14,269 bases of DNA from Candidatus Methanoplasma sp. Its GTDB lineage: Archaea > Thermoplasmatota > Thermoplasmata > Methanomassiliicoccales > Methanomethylophilaceae. Each line of letters starts with the position of its first letter. The stretch's first letter is position 1. Shown in pieces: positions 1,012 to 9,179 of this stretch. A program made the translations under genes and the position numbers. The notes beneath the pieces were generated by a model. The model searched no databases. It saw only the letters and a list, made by a program, of their open reading frames with translations, and was not told the DNA's origin. The stretch spans positions 1-14,269 of the forward strand of contig JAIRQG010000125.1 in assembly GCA_031256615.1 (NCBI GenBank), in the 5' to 3' direction.

Positions 1012-2739
1012 ATGGTAGCGCATAATAATGAAAATAAGAACAAAATGTTCGAAAAACGCCCTATCCTGAAATACGGGATGCTTGCATTAGTGTTATTGGT
1101 GGCGTCGGCCATTGTGGTACAGGTCGTCCCGGGAGGAACAGAAGACACAGCGGCTGCTGATGTCTCGATCAACCTGGACAACAACATCGGCTCCGGGACC
1201 GGATATTCGTGGAGCGGCACTACATTAACCATTAACGGAAATAACAACACCTACACCATCACTCAAAGCATCTCAACCGTTTTGGAGAGAAAGATCGTTG
1301 TTCCATACGGCGTGAGCAGTGTTACGGTGAAGATCAACGGCATTAACATCAGAGGAGATGTCGAAATTCAGTGCATCGCACCCGTGAAGCTGCTTTTGGC
1401 AGGCACCAACGTGATCAGCGGGAGCATCCTGTTGCCGAAAGACTCAACGATCACCATCGACAGCGCCGACAGCACCAATGCCCGCCCGGGCAACGTCAAC
1501 GGCACACTGAATGTCACTGCTTCAGTTTCCGCTTACGCAGGTATCGGCGGCAGCGGGACCGGTGACGGCAGCGGCGGCACAATAACCATCAACGGCGGGA
1601 CCGTGAACGCGATCGGCGGCCAATATGCCGCAGGCATCGGCGGCGGCGGCAACGGCGGCGGTACTGTGGTCGTCGGCGGCGGCACTGTTACCGCCACAGG
1701 CGGCGGCGGTGCAGCAGGCATCGGCGGCGGCAATAACGGCAGCGGGACAGTGACTATACGCGGCGGGACAGTGACCGCAGTCGGCGGCGCCGGCGGCGCA
1801 GGCATCAGCGGCGGCAGTAACGGCGGCGGGACAGTGACCATCGCCGGCGGGACCGTGACCGCAGTCGGCGGCAGCGGCGGCGCAGGCATCGGCGGCGGAC
1901 AGAACGGCGGTGGCGGCACCATAACCGTCGGGAGCAATACGACCATAAAGGCATATTCAGTCGGAAGACCTGCCATCCACGCTTCCAGCATAAGCTCCGC
2001 AAGCACCGGGTATTTTGTGAATCTCACTCTCGGTACGGATCTTCCCTCGGGAGCTTCGAGCATACTTGTTTATGCTTACGGCACCACGAATACAGTGCTG
2101 GCAACGCTGACGCCGCCTGATTCCAATTACAGAGGTTTCGCCTTCACGCTGCCGAATTCCACATCCTCGAAGCACTACAGCATTTTTGTGCTGAACTCGG
2201 AGGGACAGAGACCGATCCTGCGCGCCAGTGACAGCAACCCAGACATCTATTCGATCAAAGGGCTGGACAACTACAATGTGTACAACAGCAATGCCAACAA
2301 CGGCATCCTACCCGTAAAGCTGGATGTCCTCACGTCCGCTTTTGTCGCTGTCACAGATGTGTTCGGAGTGCCTGCATCGGTAACCATCGGAAAACCTTTG
2401 ACCCTGAGCGGCGCGGCGGTCCCCTCTAACGCGACGAACCAGCCCATAGTATGGACGGTCAAGAACGCTGGAACCACAGGGGCGACCATAAGCGACAATG
2501 TGCTTTCCGCCACAGATGAAGGTACTGTTGTGATAACAGCCACCATCACCAACGGCACTGCCACCGGCACCAGCTTTGTAAAGGACTTCAATATCGCCGT
2601 GAGTGTAAAGGAAAAAAGTTCCGGCGGCGGAGATTCGGGCCCGAGCATGTGGATGTGGGTCGGCATGGTGATAGCCATCATCATCCTTCTTGCCATCACG
2701 GTGTCCATGCTGCGCAAGGGCGGCGTGATCAGAAGCTGA
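1012..2739 (+). CDS. Membrane-anchored surface protein with Gly-rich beta-helix-type repeats and a Big-like domain (adhesin-like)
   Basis: Product of 575 residues from ATG 1012; an upstream GTG at 1003 is in frame but less likely. Residues 21-39 form a hydrophobic segment (GMLALVLLVASAIVVQVV) that is a signal peptide or N-terminal anchor, with a possible cleavage site after the Ala run near residue 48. Residues about 176-306 are tandem copies of a 28-residue unit of the type GTVTIRGGTVTAVGG followed by GAGISGG, as in repetitive beta-helix surface proteins of gut microbes. Residues about 446-535 look like a Big/Ig-like domain (ATDEGTVVITATITNGTATG). After a Ser/Gly linker, residues 546-567 form a transmembrane helix with a short basic tail. 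The architecture implies an extracellular protein fixed in the membrane, perhaps for adhesion or glycan binding; the ligand cannot be read from sequence. It appears monocistronic, with its own promoter and terminator. Confidence 0.8.
   Translation: MVAHNNENKNKMFEKRPILKYGMLALVLLVASAIVVQVVPGGTEDTAAADVSINLDNNIGSGTGYSWSGTTLTINGNNNTYTITQSISTVLERKIVVPYGVSSVTVKINGINIRGDVEIQCIAPVKLLLAGTNVISGSILLPKDSTITIDSADSTNARPGNVNGTLNVTASVSAYAGIGGSGTGDGSGGTITINGGTVNAIGGQYAAGIGGGGNGGGTVVVGGGTVTATGGGGAAGIGGGNNGSGTVTIRGGTVTAVGGAGGAGISGGSNGGGTVTIAGGTVTAVGGSGGAGIGGGQNGGGGTITVGSNTTIKAYSVGRPAIHASSISSASTGYFVNLTLGTDLPSGASSILVYAYGTTNTVLATLTPPDSNYRGFAFTLPNSTSSKHYSIFVLNSEGQRPILRASDSNPDIYSIKGLDNYNVYNSNANNGILPVKLDVLTSAFVAVTDVFGVPASVTIGKPLTLSGAAVPSNATNQPIVWTVKNAGTTGATISDNVLSATDEGTVVITATITNGTATGTSFVKDFNIAVSVKEKSSGGGDSGPSMWMWVGMVIAIIILLAITVSMLRKGGVIRS
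1540..1930 (+). repeat. In-gene 84-bp tandem repeats encoding Gly-rich units
   Basis: Three clear and two degenerate copies of an 84-base unit encode GGTV(V/T)(V/I)xGGTVTAxGG then (A/G)AGIxGG and a short N/G linker. GGC dominates the glycine codons, making the stretch far more GC-rich than its surroundings. Such repeats can gain or lose copies by slippage or recombination. Confidence 0.8.
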
Positions 2740-2781
2740 ACCAAACCGCAAAACACTGCGGCGAGAAACATTTTTGACAAC

Positions 2782-2811
2782 CTGCCGGCCTCGGCCGGCA
2801 GATCCGTTTTT
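2782..2811 (+). terminator. Hairpin plus T-tract terminator after the surface-protein gene
   Basis: CTGCCGGC at 2782-2789 and GCCGGCAG at 2794-2801 form a perfect 8-bp stem with a 4-base loop (9 bp if the loop is 2 bases). Five T residues follow at 2807-2811. It lies 43 bases after the stop codon. Archaeal termination depends mostly on the T-tract, so the strong stem is notable. Confidence 0.6.
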
Positions 2812-2998
2812 CTCAGCAGCTCCCCGGTCTGCCGACGAACCCGGAGCATGTGCCCAAAAGTGCGTACATATCCATGCCGGCAGCGGTACGATGCAGACAT
2901 TTTTCACTGCATATTCATTGCCATTACCGGACCGACGGCTTTGTCTGATGATGCTGCCAAACGAGAAAAAAACAGCATGTTGGCACATATATAGTACT

Positions 2999-3015
2999 CG
3001 AAAGCCTTAATATAG
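2999..3015 (+). promoter_or_regulatory. BRE/TATA promoter of the hdrD-like gene
   Basis: CGAAAG (BRE-like, 2999-3004) directly precedes CCTTAATATAG (3005-3015). The TATA centre is about 30 bases before ATG 3041, predicting a leader of 0-5 bases. A second A/T box, CATATATAG, at about 2985-2993 could be an alternative. Confidence 0.55.
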
Positions 3016-3040
3016 GTGCGTGCGTTTTTCTTCTCTTATT

Positions 3041-4891
3041 ATGAAAGCGCTAGAGAATCCATTTTCAAAGCTGAAAGACAACATCAAGATAGGAAAGACA
3101 CCGCGCATACAACAAGAGCTTGCCGCCTGCCTGCAGTGCGGATACTGCATCAGCGTATGCGAGGCCCACAATCAGACCCCGTGGGAATCCGTCACTCCCA
3201 GGGGAAAGATCTACTATCTCAGGCAGCTCAGCAATGCAGGAAGCACAGACAAGCTGCTAGGAAGGGAGGTTGCCCTCAGCCCGTATTTCGTTGACGCGAT
3301 GTACAAATGCACCGGCTGCGGGAACTGCGAGGTAGTATGCCATGCCAACATACCGCTTGTGGAGTTCTGGGAGACCGTTAGGAAATGGATGGTCGATGAA
3401 GGCGTCGGTCCGATGAGCGCGCACAAAGGCATGGCAACGAAGGTCGGAGCCGTACACAACCCGTACGGAGAGCCGCCTTCCAAGAGAGGAGACTGGTGGC
3501 CTGCGGAGGTGGAGAAATCCGCTGCTCCTGAAGTTATGTTTTTTGCAGGATGCACCGGAGCATACAGACAGCAGAGTCTGCCGCAGACCGGCGTGCGCGT
3601 GCTTGCTAGGGCGGGAGTGAAGATCAGCACGCTCGGCCCCGATGAGTGGTGTTGCTCGTCGCCTCTGCTCAGAACCGGCACCAACAAATATTCTCTGGAG
3701 TGCGCAGAGAAAGTGGTGGAGGGAGCGGACGGCGTCGGCGCAAAGGATATGGTGATGACGTGCTCAGGATGCTATAAGACCGTTTCCACCGACTTCGGAA
3801 AGTTCTATGCGAAGACCGGACAGAACGTATATCACTTCTCCCAGTATGTGGAGAAGCTTATTGCAGAGAAGAAACTCCCGCTAAACCACGAATTCAAAGC
3901 AAAAGTGACATATCACGATCCATGCCACATGGGAAGGCATATGGGGGTCTTCGATGCGCCCAGGAACGTCCTGAAGAAGATCAAAGGCCTGGAACTTGTG
4001 GAAATGACCCGCACAAAAGAGAACTCAAGGTGCTGCGGCGCCGGAGGCGGGTACAAGAGCCAATATAATGATCTGGCTGTGAACATCGCCGCTGAGAGGA
4101 TAAAAGACGCAGAGGAGACCGGTGCGGAGATCCTCGTTACCTGCTGTCCGTTCTGCGTTGTCAATCTGACGCAGGGGGCAAAGCAGGCCGGTTCCAAGAT
4201 CAAGATCATGGACCTTTCGGAGATCCTCCTGAAAGTGACCGCTCCTATCGAGAAACCTGCCGAGGGCGCTAAGCCCGATGCGGCGAAAGAAAAGCCACGG
4301 GAAGTTTCGCCCGATGCCGCCGCTGCAGAAAAAGAAAAGCAGGCCGCTTTGGAAAAAGAGAAGGCTGCCGCTGCAGAAAAAGAAAAGCAGGCCGCTTTGG
4401 AAAAGGAGAAGGCTGCCGCTGCAGAAAAAGAAAAACAGGCTGCTGCAGAAAGAGAAAGGCTGGCTGCTTTGGAAAAGGAGAAGGCTGATGCTGCAGAAAG
4501 AGAAAGGCTGGCCCAGGCTGAGAAAGATCTACCGGCCGCAGAGGCCGAAGCAGATGCTGAGGAGGAGGAAGAGTTCATCGGAGAGGACATCTGGACCGAT
4601 AATTCCCCCGAAGCGCTTGTAAGAAGGGCCTCATGGAACAAAGGCCTGAGGTGCAGGAAGGACTACGGACCAAACAATATACCTGTGGCATTCGTTAAAC
4701 CGAAGGTGGCAGTGTACATCCTCGAAAAAGGAGAAGCAGATGCAGCGGTAAAGAAGGAACTTGAGGATGAAGGATGGATCGTCCTGTCTTTCCTTGAGAA
4801 AGATGTCACTGACGGAGAAGAACAGGCGGTCAAGATAAAAGCGGCCGTCAAAGAGAACCGCAGAGCGCACAGCAAGAAAAAGAGAAGATAA
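3041..4891 (+). CDS. hdrD: HdrD-like heterodisulfide reductase subunit with charged repeat linker and extra C-terminal domain
   Basis: Product of 616 residues from ATG 3041, chosen over the in-frame GTG 3020 because the TATA box predicts a leaderless start. Two ferredoxin-type 4Fe-4S motifs come first: C30/C33/C36/C40 and C90/C93/C96/C100. Then come two complete CCG domains: C171, C204-C205, C241, C244 and C295, C331-C332, C368-C369, C372. In HdrD/HdrB these bind the noncubane clusters that reduce the CoM-S-S-CoB disulfide at the end of methanogenesis. HdrD is usually about 400 residues, and here that core ends near residue 405. It is followed by an Ala/Glu/Lys octapeptide repeat (about 425-500), an acidic stretch, and a domain at about 512-616. 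No hdrE-like membrane partner or glcD-like dehydrogenase gene lies beside it. Related GlpC/GlcF-type Fe-S subunits share the core, so the substrate is likely but not certain. Confidence 0.72.
   Translation: MKALENPFSKLKDNIKIGKTPRIQQELAACLQCGYCISVCEAHNQTPWESVTPRGKIYYLRQLSNAGSTDKLLGREVALSPYFVDAMYKCTGCGNCEVVCHANIPLVEFWETVRKWMVDEGVGPMSAHKGMATKVGAVHNPYGEPPSKRGDWWPAEVEKSAAPEVMFFAGCTGAYRQQSLPQTGVRVLARAGVKISTLGPDEWCCSSPLLRTGTNKYSLECAEKVVEGADGVGAKDMVMTCSGCYKTVSTDFGKFYAKTGQNVYHFSQYVEKLIAEKKLPLNHEFKAKVTYHDPCHMGRHMGVFDAPRNVLKKIKGLELVEMTRTKENSRCCGAGGGYKSQYNDLAVNIAAERIKDAEETGAEILVTCCPFCVVNLTQGAKQAGSKIKIMDLSEILLKVTAPIEKPAEGAKPDAAKEKPREVSPDAAAAEKEKQAALEKEKAAAAEKEKQAALEKEKAAAAEKEKQAAAERERLAALEKEKADAAERERLAQAEKDLPAAEAEADAEEEEEFIGEDIWTDNSPEALVRRASWNKGLRCRKDYGPNNIPVAFVKPKVAVYILEKGEADAAVKKELEDEGWIVLSFLEKDVTDGEEQAVKIKAAVKENRRAHSKKKRR
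4317..4535 (+). repeat. 24/48-bp tandem repeat coding for a charged helix
   Basis: The octapeptides AAAEKEKQ and AALEKEKA alternate, and variants with ERERL follow. At DNA level CTGCAG recurs at 4323, 4371, 4419, 4443 and 4491, giving a 48-base higher-order unit built from two 24-base units. The first copies are nearly identical and later ones diverge, so expansion may be recent at the 5' side. The coded segment should be a rigid, solvent-exposed alpha helix, similar in character to TolA domain II. Confidence 0.85.
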
Positions 4892-4930: not shown

Positions 4931-7675
4931 ATGTCATTCGAAATACTCTGTCCGGAACTCATTTCTGCTTTGAAAGACAGAGGCATAACGCAGCCTACCG
5001 ACCCTCAGAGGGACGTTATCCCGAAGATACTCTCCGGGAAGAACATCCTTCTCGTCGCTCCCACCGGCATCGGAAAGACCGAGGCCGCCATGCTTCCGAT
5101 ATTTGATTCGATATTTAAGACAAAAGGAAAGAATGGGGTTCGCTGCCTCTACATAACGCCTCTGAGAGCGCTGAACAGGGACATGCTGAAAAGGATGGAG
5201 GACTACGGAAGGGCGCTGGACATCTCCGTAGGCGTTAGGCACGGAGACAGCACACAGGCGGAAAGGAACAGACAGTCGCAGAAGGCTCCCGAGATCCTTA
5301 TCACAACGCCGGAGACACTGCAGGTGCTTTTTACAGGCAAACGGCTGAGAGAACATCTCAAGAACATTGAGTGGGTGGTCATAGACGAGGTCCACGAGCT
5401 GTCAAGCACCGAAAGAGGCGCACAGATGAGTGTTGCCCTGGAAAGACTTGCGGAATTAAGCGGAGAGTATCAGAGGATAGGTCTGTCCGCGACCGTCGGC
5501 GATGTGGAGGATGTCAAAGGGTTCCTTTCCGGGGTGGGTAGGGAGATAACGATCTGCAAGCACGACACGCACAGGGAATTCGAAATAGTGGTGGAGTGCC
5601 CTGCTCCGGACGAGAATGACGCGGTCCTTCTGGATAAACTGCAAAGCGACCCCGAGATCCTGGCTGTGATGAAAAGGGCAAGACGGCTGATGGAATCCGG
5701 AAGGTCCACGCTGTTCTTCGTGAACACAAGGGAGACGGCAGAGTGGCTTGCAGCAAGGTACCACCTCTGGGATGAGGATTTTTCCATTGACGTGCACCAT
5801 GGGTCCCTTTCAAAAGAGAACCGGATGAATATCGAGGACAGATTCAAAAACGGCGACCTTAAAGCGGTCATCGCAACCTCTTCCCTTGAGCTGGGGATCG
5901 ATATCGGATCAGCAGACCTTGTCATACAATACAACTCTCCCAGAGAGGTCTCCCGGATGATACAGCGCGCCGGGCGCGCCGGACACAGGATGGGCGAGGT
6001 CATCCGCTCGGTGATCCTTGCGACGGCGCCGGACGAGGTAGCCGAAGCGCTGGTCATAGCAAGGAGGAGCGACGCGAAGGAATTGGAATATTTCAAAGGA
6101 AGAAAGAACCCTTTCACCGTGCTTGCAAACCAACTGATCGCGATGACGATGAGCGGCCGTACCGACAGAGACCTTGCGTATAAGATATTCAGAAGATCGA
6201 ATCCATTCCGGACCCTTTCCCGTTCAGACATGGACAATGTGCTTGAACAGCTGAAATCCATAAAAATGATATTCGAGGACGAGAGCGGATTCAGGCGTTC
6301 GAAGAAGGGGATGCAGTATTTCTATGACAACATCTCCATGATCCCCGACGAGAGGACCTATCTCATAAGGGACATTAGCACAAGAGGGATCATCGGGACC
6401 CTGGACGAGAGTTTTGTTGCCTCCTTCGCCGAACCGTATGCGATGTTCATCGCAAAAGGCAGGACATGGAGGATCGTTGAGATGAGGGAGGACGAGCTCC
6501 TTGTCGAAGAGGCAAGGGATGTGGGGTCTGTGCCGTCCTGGGCAGGTTCGGACATACCTGTTCCTTTCGAGGTCGCCATGGAGGTCGGAAGGATGCGCCA
6601 TAAGATGAATTATGACAGATACCCAGGCGATGAGAACTGCTACAAAAAGGTCTCGGAATACATCAACGAGCAAAAAGAAAAATGGCCGGTCCCCACCGAC
6701 GATACGATAACTCTCGAAACCGGGGACAGGCTGGCAATACTGAACTGCTGTTTCGGGAGCAGGGTCAACGAGACCTTCGGAAAGATCTACTCTGCGCTTC
6801 TCACGGCGCGCCTCGGAGAAAGCATCGGCGTATCGACCGATCCGTACAGAATAATCCTTGAGCTTCCCAGGAACATCGACAAAAAGATCCTGGAAGATAC
6901 CTTCAGATCCATACGGCCGGGGACCATAGAGTCGTTGGCCAGAAAGACCATACTCAACTCAACATATCTGAAATGGCGTTTCGTACATGTAGCAAAGAAA
7001 TTCGGCATAATCGAAAAAGGGGCGGACCACCGGTTCATCAACTTCAACCGCCTTTTCGAGCTTCATAAAGATACTCCGGCATATAACGAAGCGATCAATA
7101 TTGTGCTGTGGGAGGATCTCGACATCGAAAACACCGAGCTTGCGGTGAAAATGCTGGCAGAAGGGAAGATAAAGATCAGGGTCGGCGGCGTATCCCGCAT
7201 AGGCCTTGAAGGAATTGTGAGGTCAAAGGAACTTATGCAGCCCAGGAGAGCGGACCACACCATTCTGATGGCGCTCAAGAAGAGGCTGGAAGAGGAAGTG
7301 CTGCACGCATCTTGTCTGAACTGCCTCAACCAATGGAGAATGAGGGTAAGCGATGCTCCTCAGCAGATAAGATGTTCTAAATGCGGCGGGAACATGGTTG
7401 CCCTCCTCAAAGAGTATGAGAGAGAAAGCATCAAGAGCATCAAAATGAAGGAACGCGGCGAACAGGAGAAGAAGGATGCCATGAGAGTTTCGCGCAACGC
7501 GAACCTTGTCAACGAATATGGAAAAAGGGCTGCCATCGTCCTTGCAGGCAGAGGCGTGGGCCCCGACGGCGCCTCCAGGATCCTGAGGAGCATGCATCTT
7601 GATGAGGATGATTTCCTCCGCGACATAATGAACGCAGAGATCCTTTACGCCAAGAACAAACGTTTCTGGGACTGA
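4931..7675 (+). CDS. lhr: Lhr-family ATP-dependent helicase (archaeal Lhr core type) with C-terminal zinc motif
   Basis: A 914-residue superfamily 2 helicase. Motifs in order: I PTGIGKTEAA (44-53), Ia TPLRALNRD (76-84), Ib TPETL (126-130), II DEVH (152-155), III SAT (186-188), IV LFFVNTRETAEWLA (261-274), V IATSSLELGIDIG (314-326), VI QRAGRAGHR (345-353). The long region after the two RecA domains matches the winged-helix and Lhr-specific core expected for this length. Lhr enzymes translocate 3'-5' on single-stranded DNA and unwind DNA or RNA:DNA hybrids in repair or recombination. Near the C terminus a C795-x2-C798 and C815-x2-C818 pair looks like a zinc ribbon, followed by a lysine/arginine-rich tail. 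ATG 4931 places the Q-motif region at the usual distance from motif I. No separate TATA box is visible, so it may be read from the hdrD promoter. The last codons lie in direct repeat copy A. Confidence 0.92.
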   Translation: MSFEILCPELISALKDRGITQPTDPQRDVIPKILSGKNILLVAPTGIGKTEAAMLPIFDSIFKTKGKNGVRCLYITPLRALNRDMLKRMEDYGRALDISVGVRHGDSTQAERNRQSQKAPEILITTPETLQVLFTGKRLREHLKNIEWVVIDEVHELSSTERGAQMSVALERLAELSGEYQRIGLSATVGDVEDVKGFLSGVGREITICKHDTHREFEIVVECPAPDENDAVLLDKLQSDPEILAVMKRARRLMESGRSTLFFVNTRETAEWLAARYHLWDEDFSIDVHHGSLSKENRMNIEDRFKNGDLKAVIATSSLELGIDIGSADLVIQYNSPREVSRMIQRAGRAGHRMGEVIRSVILATAPDEVAEALVIARRSDAKELEYFKGRKNPFTVLANQLIAMTMSGRTDRDLAYKIFRRSNPFRTLSRSDMDNVLEQLKSIKMIFEDESGFRRSKKGMQYFYDNISMIPDERTYLIRDISTRGIIGTLDESFVASFAEPYAMFIAKGRTWRIVEMREDELLVEEARDVGSVPSWAGSDIPVPFEVAMEVGRMRHKMNYDRYPGDENCYKKVSEYINEQKEKWPVPTDDTITLETGDRLAILNCCFGSRVNETFGKIYSALLTARLGESIGVSTDPYRIILELPRNIDKKILEDTFRSIRPGTIESLARKTILNSTYLKWRFVHVAKKFGIIEKGADHRFINFNRLFELHKDTPAYNEAINIVLWEDLDIENTELAVKMLAEGKIKIRVGGVSRIGLEGIVRSKELMQPRRADHTILMALKKRLEEEVLHASCLNCLNQWRMRVSDAPQQIRCSKCGGNMVALLKEYERESIKSIKMKERGEQEKKDAMRVSRNANLVNEYGKRAAIVLAGRGVGPDGASRILRSMHLDEDDFLRDIMNAEILYAKNKRFWD

Positions 7676-7686
7676 TCAGATATTGC
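7642..7686. repeat. 45-bp direct repeat, copy A (left flank of the toxin-antitoxin module)
   Basis: This copy contains the last codons and stop of lhr, then TCAGATATTGC. It matches 8462-8506 at 42 of 45 positions; the differences are 7647 a/t, 7649 g/a and 7670 g/a. The longest exact run is 20 bases on one side of the last mismatch and 16 on the other. The palindrome CTGATCAG (7672-7679) lies inside. Confidence 0.93.
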
Positions 7687-8042
7687 TATCTTTGTTGTTG
7701 GTATTCAACTCACCCAATATGATTTTGAACTGTCTTTTGAACAAAGGAATCTCTTCAGTCACAGTGTACCATATCTGATTCAAATCGATTTTCCAATAGT
7801 GGTGTGCAATCACTATTCTAAGCCCAATAATCCCTGGCCAATCGATTTCTGGATACCTGGCTGTGAGCCCCACGGACAGGTTATTCACAGCCTCTCCGAA
7901 ACATTCGAGATAGGATCACATTATCTTGGTAGCGTTTGTTGTTCATGAATATCTCCACATCTTCTCCATAAAACCGTATGTGATCTTCTATCCAATTGCA
8001 CTGTTCAATGATATCTATGACAAGAGTTCGGTCATCTCTCAT
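7676..8042 (-). pseudogene. hepT: HepT-like (DUF86) toxin, frameshifted
   Basis: HepT toxins are HEPN-fold RNases held inactive by the partner MntA. Starting at ATG 8042, the frame reads MRDDRTLVIDIIEQCNWIED and continues to DNVILS, then shifts at about 7905-7912 into a different frame that reads LECFGEAVNNLS. That second frame goes on to YPEIDWPGIIGLRIVIAHHY and IDLNQIWYTVTEEIP. The joined product is about 122 residues, normal for the family. It contains the R-x4-H-x-Y active-site motif (RIVIAHHY), but only after the shift. The break fits loss of one TC from a TCTCTC run. Unshifted, translation ends after about 48 residues (MFRRGCE) without the active site. The start overlaps the mntA stop by 11 bases. 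The final codons and the stop lie in repeat copy A. A sequencing error or programmed shift remains possible. Confidence 0.8.
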
Positions 8043-8346
8043 ATATGACCACTCCGTCTCTTTCAACATTGAGAAGAAATTCAGACCCTTTTTCCAGAGC
8101 ATTTCTGGATATGACATCAACCTCTTTGCCGATGGCGTGCCTTATGTCCATGTACAGATGCCCAAATGTTACAGCACTCTTGACGCTTCCAGGATCAATG
8201 CAGAAATCATAATCGCTGTCAGCAGCGGCATCGCCCCTTGCTGAAGAACCAAAAAGGACAACTCGATCTACATTATACCGTCTGGCAATCGGGACAAGAA
8301 GTTCTCTCAGATCCTCAATAGACAGCTTTTCTGACTTGTTGCCCAT
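8032..8346 (-). CDS. mntA: MntA-like minimal nucleotidyltransferase antitoxin
   Basis: Product of 104 residues beginning MGNKSEKLSIEDLRELLVPI. It has the nucleotidyltransferase signature GS-x10-D-x-D in VVLFGSSARGDAAADSDYDF, and a later acidic residue in the KEVDVIS strand that can complete the metal-binding triad. In characterised HepT-MntA systems, MntA neutralises HepT by AMPylating the tyrosine of R-x4-H-x-Y. ATG 8346 is preferred over upstream in-frame starts because a TATA-like AATTATATC (8368-8376) sits about 26 bases upstream, fitting a leaderless mRNA. The stop overlaps the hepT start, so the two are translationally coupled in the usual antitoxin-first order. The gene is intact although its partner is frameshifted. 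Its surroundings are more A/T-rich than the neighbouring housekeeping genes, and repeats flank the pair, which together point to horizontal acquisition. Confidence 0.88.
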   Translation of the reverse strand: MGNKSEKLSIEDLRELLVPIARRYNVDRVVLFGSSARGDAAADSDYDFCIDPGSVKSAVTFGHLYMDIRHAIGKEVDVISRNALEKGSEFLLNVERDGVVIYER

Positions 8347-8367
8347 ATGTGAGAGATAACGTCCGAA

Positions 8368-8399
8368 GATATAATTCTGGCCGCTTATGTGGTGCCACA
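8368..8399 (-). promoter_or_regulatory. mntA-hepT promoter with a possible operator
   Basis: AATTATATC (minus strand, 8368-8376) is a TATA-like box centred 26 bases from ATG 8346. A short inverted repeat TGTGG-TG-CCACA at 8388-8399 lies just upstream of it and could be an operator for autoregulation. The operator idea is inference from position only. Confidence 0.4.
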
Positions 8400-8461
8400 A
8401 CACATCTGAGATAAATCAAAGGGGCATCCGATGATGATATGGCGATACGGATATGTTGAAG

Positions 8462-8506
8462 CCTTTTCACCAAGAACAAACGTTTCTGGAACTGATCAGA
8501 TATTGC
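8462..8506. repeat. 45-bp direct repeat, copy B (right flank of the toxin-antitoxin module)
   Basis: This copy ends inside the 3' end of rlmE, whose stop codon is at 8496-8498. Its left two thirds repeat the end of lhr but are not translated here, and all three mismatches to copy A fall in that part. The offset to copy A is 820 bases. Confidence 0.93.
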
Positions 8507-9179
8507 CGCCCTTCGGCACGAATTCCGGTTTCTCCCTTTCTTCTGCAATTTCCTTCAGTTTGACATTCCTTGAAGCGAGGAACCCTTTGGATATTATGTA
8601 CATTTCCGATGACGTATCCCTTGACGCCGCAGGCGAATGCGTCTTAACGGACACGAACCTCGACTCAAGCTCTTTGACAAGAGAATCCATCATATCTCCC
8701 ATGAACACCTTCACCACCATCTTGCCTCCTTTCTTCAGGGTCCTGTCGCATACCGCCACAGCATACATGCACAGGTCCACGGATCTGGCATGGTCGGTGG
8801 AATAGTGCCCTCCGATATTGGGCGCCATGTCTGAGAGCACGACATCGACTTTTCCTCCGACGGTCTCCAAGAGTTTCCTCATTGTGCTGTCTTCTGTGAT
8901 ATCTCCGATTATGGTTGTGACGCCGTCCATAGGCCTTATGTAACGGAGGTCCACACCGACCACTTTCCCGTTTTCCCCGACACACTCCTTCGCCACTTGG
9001 AGCCATCCGCCGGGGGATGCCCCGAGGTCGACGACCGAGTCACCTTCCCGGAAGATGCCGAACTTTTCGTTTATCTGTACCAGTTTAAAGGATGCCCTGG
9101 ACCTGTAATTGAGCTTCTTTGCCATTTTGTAATAGTGCTCATGCTTCCTTTCTTGGACCCAACGGTCGTGGAGAGACAT
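8496..9179 (-). CDS. rlmE: RlmE/FtsJ 23S rRNA 2'-O-methyltransferase
   Basis: This 227-residue enzyme uses S-adenosylmethionine to methylate the ribose of a conserved uridine in the A-loop of 23S rRNA (U2552 in E. coli). The SAM-binding motif is VVDLGASPGGW (49-59). The catalytic K-D-K-E tetrad is K32 (SFKL), D117 (SDMAPN), K157 (VVKVFMG) and E192 (SSEMYI), with spacing nearly the same as in E. coli RlmE. The N terminus (DRWVQERKHEHYYKMAKKLN) and the basic C-terminal tail are typical of archaeal members. ATG 9179 is supported by a TATA-like GGTTTATCGG centred 26 bases upstream. The gene converges on lhr; without the toxin-antitoxin insertion the two stop codons would be adjacent. Its last codons belong to repeat copy B. 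Confidence 0.95.
   Translation of the reverse strand: MSLHDRWVQERKHEHYYKMAKKLNYRSRASFKLVQINEKFGIFREGDSVVDLGASPGGWLQVAKECVGENGKVVGVDLRYIRPMDGVTTIIGDITEDSTMRKLLETVGGKVDVVLSDMAPNIGGHYSTDHARSVDLCMYAVAVCDRTLKKGGKMVVKVFMGDMMDSLVKELESRFVSVKTHSPAASRDTSSEMYIISKGFLASRNVKLKEIAEEREKPEFVPKGGNI

What the first reader, a model, noticed from the sequence alone, without database searches (positions are those of the whole stretch)
7642..8506. Toxin-antitoxin module bracketed by a 45-bp direct repeat made of the ends of both host genes
The sequence shows 42/45 identical copies at 7642-7686 and 8462-8506, 820 bases apart. Copy A completes lhr and copy B completes rlmE. Removing one period leaves lhr TGA immediately followed by the rlmE stop (TGATCA), a tight convergent pair. 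So a MntA-HepT module entered the junction and duplicated 45 bp without harming either gene. This resembles att-site integration into a gene end, but no integrase or transposase is present in 820 bp, so mobilisation in trans or an undescribed insertion route is implied. A palindrome, CTGATCAG, sits in the repeat at the junction.
Basis: partly seen in the sequence, partly recalled or inferred. Interest (0 to 1): 0.78.

Follow-up and report, generated by a model that had tools for sequence, protein, structure and literature searches.

The report
Toxin-antitoxin cassette between duplicated gene ends
In a methane-making archaeon, a small toxin-antitoxin gene pair has slipped between two neighbouring genes by copying about 45 letters of their shared end, and similar repeat-bracketed copies of this kind of gene pair occur in related archaea, which hints at a way such pairs spread without carrying moving machinery of their own.

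Summary
Copies 7642-7686 and 8462-8506 match at 42 of 45 bases, 820 bp apart. All 13 same-genus genomes with a readable junction have lhr and rlmE abutting without the module; 11 of 13 read TGATCA. At the 3 differing sites all 13 carry the copy-A base, so copy B has drifted. A roughly 775-bp mntA-hepT cassette thus entered and duplicated about 45 bp, leaving both host genes complete. Missed earlier: hepT is frameshifted, and its stop codon is the old rlmE stop inside copy A.

It is not isolated. Of 90 HepT-type modules tested in the family, 7 are bracketed by direct repeats; 6 of the 7 repeats derive from 3' ends of host genes. One further case, beside an arginase-family gene, also has empty sites in relatives. 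Against 322 other ORFs (6 bracketed) the excess is modest: p = 0.010, or 0.068 without the tRNA cases.

This resembles 'insertion with long target duplication', described for restriction-modification genes; my searches found no report for toxin-antitoxin modules. How the duplication forms is not shown. New variant of a known kind.

The parts
4931..7675 (+). lhr helicase gene; its last 34 bases lie in repeat copy A
   Evidence: Pfam DEAD, DEAD_assoc, WH_Lhr; ORF
7642..7686 (.). repeat copy A: end of lhr, convergent stops, 11 bases from the rlmE end; also supplies the last codons and stop of hepT
   Evidence: carries the genus base at all 3 differing positions in 13 of 13 relatives
7676..7915 (-). 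hepT, C-terminal piece with the RX4HXY motif; its stop codon is the rlmE-derived stop in copy A
   Evidence: PF01934, E 6.3e-13; frames; motif definition from PMC7641770 passages
7881..8042 (-). hepT, N-terminal piece in another frame (gene frameshifted)
   Evidence: frames; alignment with intact relatives; no Pfam match alone
8032..8346 (-). mntA, open, with GSX10DXD; one search lists it from an upstream GTG at 8403, the ATG at 8346 is the likelier start
   Evidence: PF18765, E 3.5e-12; NCBIfam MntA_antitoxin 43.9 bits, below the cut-off of 60
8462..8506 (.). repeat copy B: drifted copy of the lhr end joined to the true rlmE end
8496..9179 (-). rlmE (FtsJ-type methyltransferase)
   Evidence: PF01728, E 8.3e-57

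Best explanation
A minimal mntA-hepT cassette (about 775 bp, two genes and no recombinase) was inserted in this lineage into the adjoining convergent stops of lhr and rlmE, and about 45 bp of target were duplicated in the act. Shown: the empty site in relatives, the in-register duplication, complete host genes, hepT ending on the duplicated rlmE stop, drift of copy B, and a frameshift in hepT. Inferred: the mode is insertion with long, variable target duplication as described for restriction-modification genes, for example at a widely staggered break whose single strands are copied on both sides of the captured DNA. Inferred: insertions survive where the duplication rebuilds the end of the gene that was hit, so the repeats seen around such modules are mostly gene 3' ends. 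Inferred: while the toxin works, loss by recombination between the repeats is selected against; here hepT is already broken, so exact reversion should carry no cost.
For: Empty site in 13 of 13 readable same-genus genomes. Copy B differs from copy A at 3 sites, all non-synonymous in the lhr frame, and is closer to copy A (42/45) than to any of the 13 relatives (at most 40/45), as expected of a duplication in place followed by drift. Other modules in the family have bracketing repeats of different length and target: 7 of 90 tested, mismatched flank pairs never above 13. The L313 case repeats the layout (convergent pair, 3' end of an arginase-family gene duplicated, 86 bp) and five of seven relatives have the two genes adjacent without the module (G075, G094, G067, G034, G081).
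Against: The step that makes the duplication is not observed. The excess over other ORFs is modest (7 of 90 against 6 of 322, one-sided p 0.010; 5 of 90 without the two tRNA cases, p 0.068), and flank widths differed between scans. 83 of 90 modules show no bracket. tRNA and rnpB targets are the classic targets of integrases. In L143 neither copy completes the intact rnpB gene. Short tRNA-end matches occur elsewhere in these genomes, which weakens L310 and L319.
Confidence: 0.6

Rival explanations
1. Site-specific integration: the cassette is a stripped integrative element whose repeats are attL and attR, moved by a tyrosine recombinase acting in trans or since lost.
For: 6 of 7 repeats derive from gene 3' ends, two of them tRNAs and one rnpB; PF00589 integrases exist in 7 of 17 genus genomes; in L113 a tRNA-Pro and an integrase lie next to a module.
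Against: No shared core among the repeats and lengths from 25 to 151 bp; the one PF00589 hit in the host genome is beside tRNA-Lys; no second lhr end at 27 other occupied junctions outside the genus; serine recombinases were not searched for.
Confidence: 0.25
2. Homologous recombination: a circle or fragment from another strain already carried a gene end beside the cassette and recombined with the same gene here.
For: In L313 and L308 differences between copies favour third codon positions (8 of 13 and 7 of 11), as if both copies had been under protein constraint.
Against: In the window all 3 differences are non-synonymous and relatives side with copy A; no other genome examined carries this junction insertion; the third-position bias is also expected if only one copy is constrained.
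Confidence: 0.1
3. Assembly artefact: the repeat was created where two contigs were wrongly joined.
For: The genome is an 81% complete assembly in 151 contigs; reads were not available.
Against: The copies differ at 3 sites, both flanking genes are complete, and diverged brackets recur in other assemblies, one on a 670-kb contig (L334).
Confidence: 0.03

Closest known systems
Insertion with long target duplication of restriction-modification genes (Nobusato et al. 2000, Gene 259:99; not read, seen as described in passages of PMC1643837, PMC3874152 and PMC3031569)
   Same: A small two-gene addiction-type unit without recombinase, a related genome with the empty site, and a long direct repeat (order of 100 bp, variable) made of target sequence
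   Different: Toxin-antitoxin rather than restriction-modification genes, an archaeon, a 45-bp repeat here, and the duplicated target is the end of host genes
MNT-HEPN (MntA-HepT) mobile modules (PMC2701414, PMC7641770; passages)
   Same: Gene pair, signature motifs, and recent insertion between close relatives
   Different: Those passages give no insertion footprint; 'direct repeat' and 'target duplication' occur 0 times in the main text of PMC2701414
Cis-mobilizable elements and tRNA/gene-end integrative elements (definition recalled; listings only)
   Same: Recombinase-free DNA between direct repeats at a gene end
   Different: No related recombinase-bearing element found at the same site and no shared att core

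Membership tests
Insertion with long target duplication | Empty site in a close relative with a single copy of the target | tested here: met
   13 of 13 readable same-genus junctions
Insertion with long target duplication | Direct repeat longer than transposon-type target duplications, made of target sequence | tested here: met
   45 bp, 42 of 45, lhr and rlmE ends
Insertion with long target duplication | Variable target and length between events | tested here: met
   7 brackets, 25 to 151 bp, different host sequences
Insertion with long target duplication | Inserted unit is a restriction-modification system | tested here: not met
   Nucleotidyltransferase and HepT-like RNase genes; so it works like this class, it is not a member in the published sense
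Integrase-made att-bounded element | Recombinase gene in the element | tested here: not met
   Only mntA and hepT pieces in 820 bp
Integrase-made att-bounded element | Related recombinase-bearing element with the same att core | tested here: not met
   None at 27 other-genus occupied junctions; the one PF00589 hit in this genome is at tRNA-Lys
Integrase-made att-bounded element | Circular form or precise excision | not testable with these tools
   No reads or cultures
MntA-HepT toxin-antitoxin (PF01909-type/PF01934) | GSX10DXD in MntA and RX4HXY in HepT, adjacent genes | tested here: met
   Read from the translations; motif definitions from PMC7641770 passages
MntA-HepT toxin-antitoxin (PF01909-type/PF01934) | Intact toxin gene | tested here: not met
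   hepT frameshifted; a sequencing error cannot be excluded without reads

The most novel reading that the evidence does not exclude
MntA-HepT cassettes are mobile units in their own right in Methanomassiliicoccales: bare two-gene DNA that inserts with long, variable target duplications by a dedicated but unknown route, with gene 3' ends as the preferred or only surviving targets, which would make toxin-antitoxin modules a second class of self-spreading addiction unit beside restriction-modification genes.
Probability: 0.3. Interest if true: 0.78.

Novelty: new variant of a known kind. Interest (0 to 1): 0.56.

Why it matters
[quoted passage not shown] An exact empty site plus rebuilt gene ends gives a clear insertion event and a signature, bracketing copies of a host gene end, that can be counted around toxin-antitoxin, restriction-modification and ordinary accessory genes in any genome collection.

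Tried and rejected
Chance or palindrome-driven repeat: rejected. Integrative element at lhr: no support. Viral, phage or plasmid carrier: 0 confirmed viral contigs for MntA, no phage match for the 865 bp, 2 plasmid records at 35% identity, apparently versions of one plasmid. Defence label: MntA matches the PADLOC candidate class PDC-S09, not pursued. The dispersed motif of G012 as a general mobiliser: found in 1 of 17 genus genomes. Shared terminal sequence among the seven inserts: none seen by eye; no statistical test made. Third-position bias as proof of donor alleles: does not discriminate. Empty site for L308: the host gene matched no other genome of 31, so uninformative. L310: four relatives match from the tRNA-Arg end on, but the other repeat is 57 bp from a contig end. 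Left out of the 13 junctions: G013 and G016 (no rlmE found) and G015 (403 bp of unrelated sequence after rlmE to the contig end, last part of lhr missing).

Full report
What is there. One search recovers the reported repeat, 7642-7686 and 8462-8506, 42 of 45 bases, 820 bp apart; the core 7650-7686 matches at 36 of 37. lhr ends in copy A and rlmE in copy B. Between them, on the rlmE strand, lie mntA (8032-8346, open) and hepT in two overlapping frames (7881-8042 and 7676-7915), so hepT is frameshifted as assembled. Its last codons and its stop come from copy A: the stop is the old rlmE stop. MntA has GSX10DXD and the hepT piece RX4HXY, the signature motifs given in passages of PMC7641770; both score below NCBIfam's cut-offs (43.9 and 20.8 bits against 60).

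Host. The window is contig 101 of a 1.18-Mb, 81% complete assembly in 151 contigs.

The empty site. rlmE was found in 58 of 61 genomes, the window's own included. Of 16 other same-genus genomes, 13 have a readable junction: lhr and rlmE abut, 11 of 13 with exactly TGATCA, one copy of the junction sequence in the stretch held, no module. Three could not be used: no rlmE was found in G013 and G016, and G015 has 403 bp of unrelated sequence after rlmE to a contig end and lacks the last part of lhr. In all 13 the base at each of the three differing positions is that of copy A. Copy B is therefore the derived one; its three changes are all non-synonymous in the lhr frame. Outside the genus the junction often holds other DNA, in several cases a fumarylacetoacetase-like gene (named by eye from translations, not tested). 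In 27 such loci (at least three of them the same contig under two names) no second lhr end was found: best score 12 against 36 in the window.

Is it isolated? MntA hits occur in 17 of 17 genus genomes and HepT hits in 15 of 17. Sixty stretches were taken. With the window they hold 60 HepT-type hits, 58 with enough flank; two have bracketing direct repeats, the window and L143. In a second sample PF01934 was found in 24 of 61 family genomes. Thirty-three further stretches were taken, 32 outside the genus and one in G014; two sub-threshold places outside the genus were not taken. Thirty-two were tested, 31 of them outside the genus: five have such repeats, L308, L334, L313, L310 and L319. The seven scores run from 16 to 113; mismatched flank pairs reach at most 13 (171 pairs, 85). 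Flank widths differed between the scans (500 and 700 bp around the module; 1100 bp on each side of hepT).

What is repeated. L313: the 3' end of an arginase-family gene (PF00491), 86 bp, convergent with a phosphoglucomutase-family gene, the same layout as the window; in five of seven relatives both genes lie together without the module (G075, G094, G067, G034, G081). L308: the 3' end of an open frame of 320 codons, 130 bp plus a second 81-bp piece; copy B has a stop and an apparent internal deletion. L310 and L319: 3' ends of tRNA-Arg (40 bp, 26 exact) and tRNA-Lys (25 bp, 4 differences); short tRNA-end matches also occur elsewhere in these genomes, so these two, L319 above all, are the weakest cases. 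L143: 151 bp holding the 3' part of RNase P RNA (RF00373), with the intact gene about 12.5 kb away on the same contig. Neither copy completes that gene, the copies share changes absent from it, and both run into a motif present 23 times in this genome and in none of the other 16, so its history is mixed. L334: 90 bp with a possible reading-frame start, host gene unclear.

Control. Among 322 other ORFs of 90-350 aa (flanks 600 and 700 bp), 6 are bracketed by repeats scoring 16 or more, at four loci; those in L150 and L323 look like tandem duplications. 7 of 90 against 6 of 322 gives one-sided Fisher p = 0.010; without the tRNA cases, 5 of 90, p = 0.068. The excess is suggestive, not strong; what is distinctive is that most repeats are ends of host genes.

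How it works, most likely. A bare cassette was inserted with duplication of the target. An insertion inside a conserved gene normally breaks it, so only insertions whose duplication rebuilds the gene end should persist; this can explain the 3'-end bias without a sequence-specific enzyme (inference). Tyrosine-recombinase integration would explain tRNA and rnpB targets but not the variety of lengths and targets. No integrase element was found at the lhr end, and the one PF00589 hit in this genome sits next to tRNA-Lys; serine recombinases were not searched for. Third-position bias in L313 and L308 (8 of 13 and 7 of 11 differences) leaves room for donor alleles.

Known work. Passages of PMC1643837, PMC3874152 and PMC3031569 describe, and PMC2654758 cites, insertion with long target duplication for restriction-modification genes (Nobusato 2000 not read; Furuta 2010 not held). 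Passages of PMC2701414 report MNT-HEPN modules present in one and absent in the other of closely related genomes; 'direct repeat' and 'target duplication' occur 0 times in that main text. The listings of searches showed me no paper on toxin-antitoxin modules inserting with long target duplications. Several of those lists were cut (search 89 showed 10 of 112, search 64 12 of 41, search 84 12 of 14), and most subscription papers are not in the library. PMC8562856 holds the phrase 'flanking direct repeats', but my look-up of the passage failed, so it is not excluded as prior art.

Noticed in passing
G012, L176-L198 (e.g. the inverted pair in L179/L180): A 19-base motif occurs 23 times (up to 1 mismatch) in G012 and 0 times in the other 16 genus genomes; one place is a long inverted repeat, so it may be the end of a species-specific small transposable element.
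   Followed up: partly
L113 (G015:C78), 2422-4087: A MntA-HepT module, a tRNA-Pro gene and an integrase-family gene lie side by side up to a contig end.
   Followed up: no
L007:2182-2584 (G015:C26): In G015 the sequence after rlmE is unrelated to lhr up to the contig end, possibly another insertion at the same junction; no MntA or HepT match in it.
   Followed up: partly
G000 contigs C81, C106, C140, C16, C10: Five of the eight HepT-type hits of this genome lie within 1 kb of a contig end (places, contig lengths), so flanking repeats may be breaking assemblies and the count of brackets may be too low.
   Followed up: no
window 1549-1884 and 4319-4510: Tandem coding repeats of 84 and 24 nt inside two ORFs.
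   Followed up: no
L323:493-2387 (G023:C4): Two repeat pairs at the same spacing of about 1.15 kb next to a MntA-HepT module suggest a tandem duplication.
   Followed up: no
Family-wide: HepT-type hits occur in 15 of 17 Methanoplasma genomes but in 17 of 53 sampled genomes of other genera of the family, so the module is unevenly expanded.
   Followed up: no
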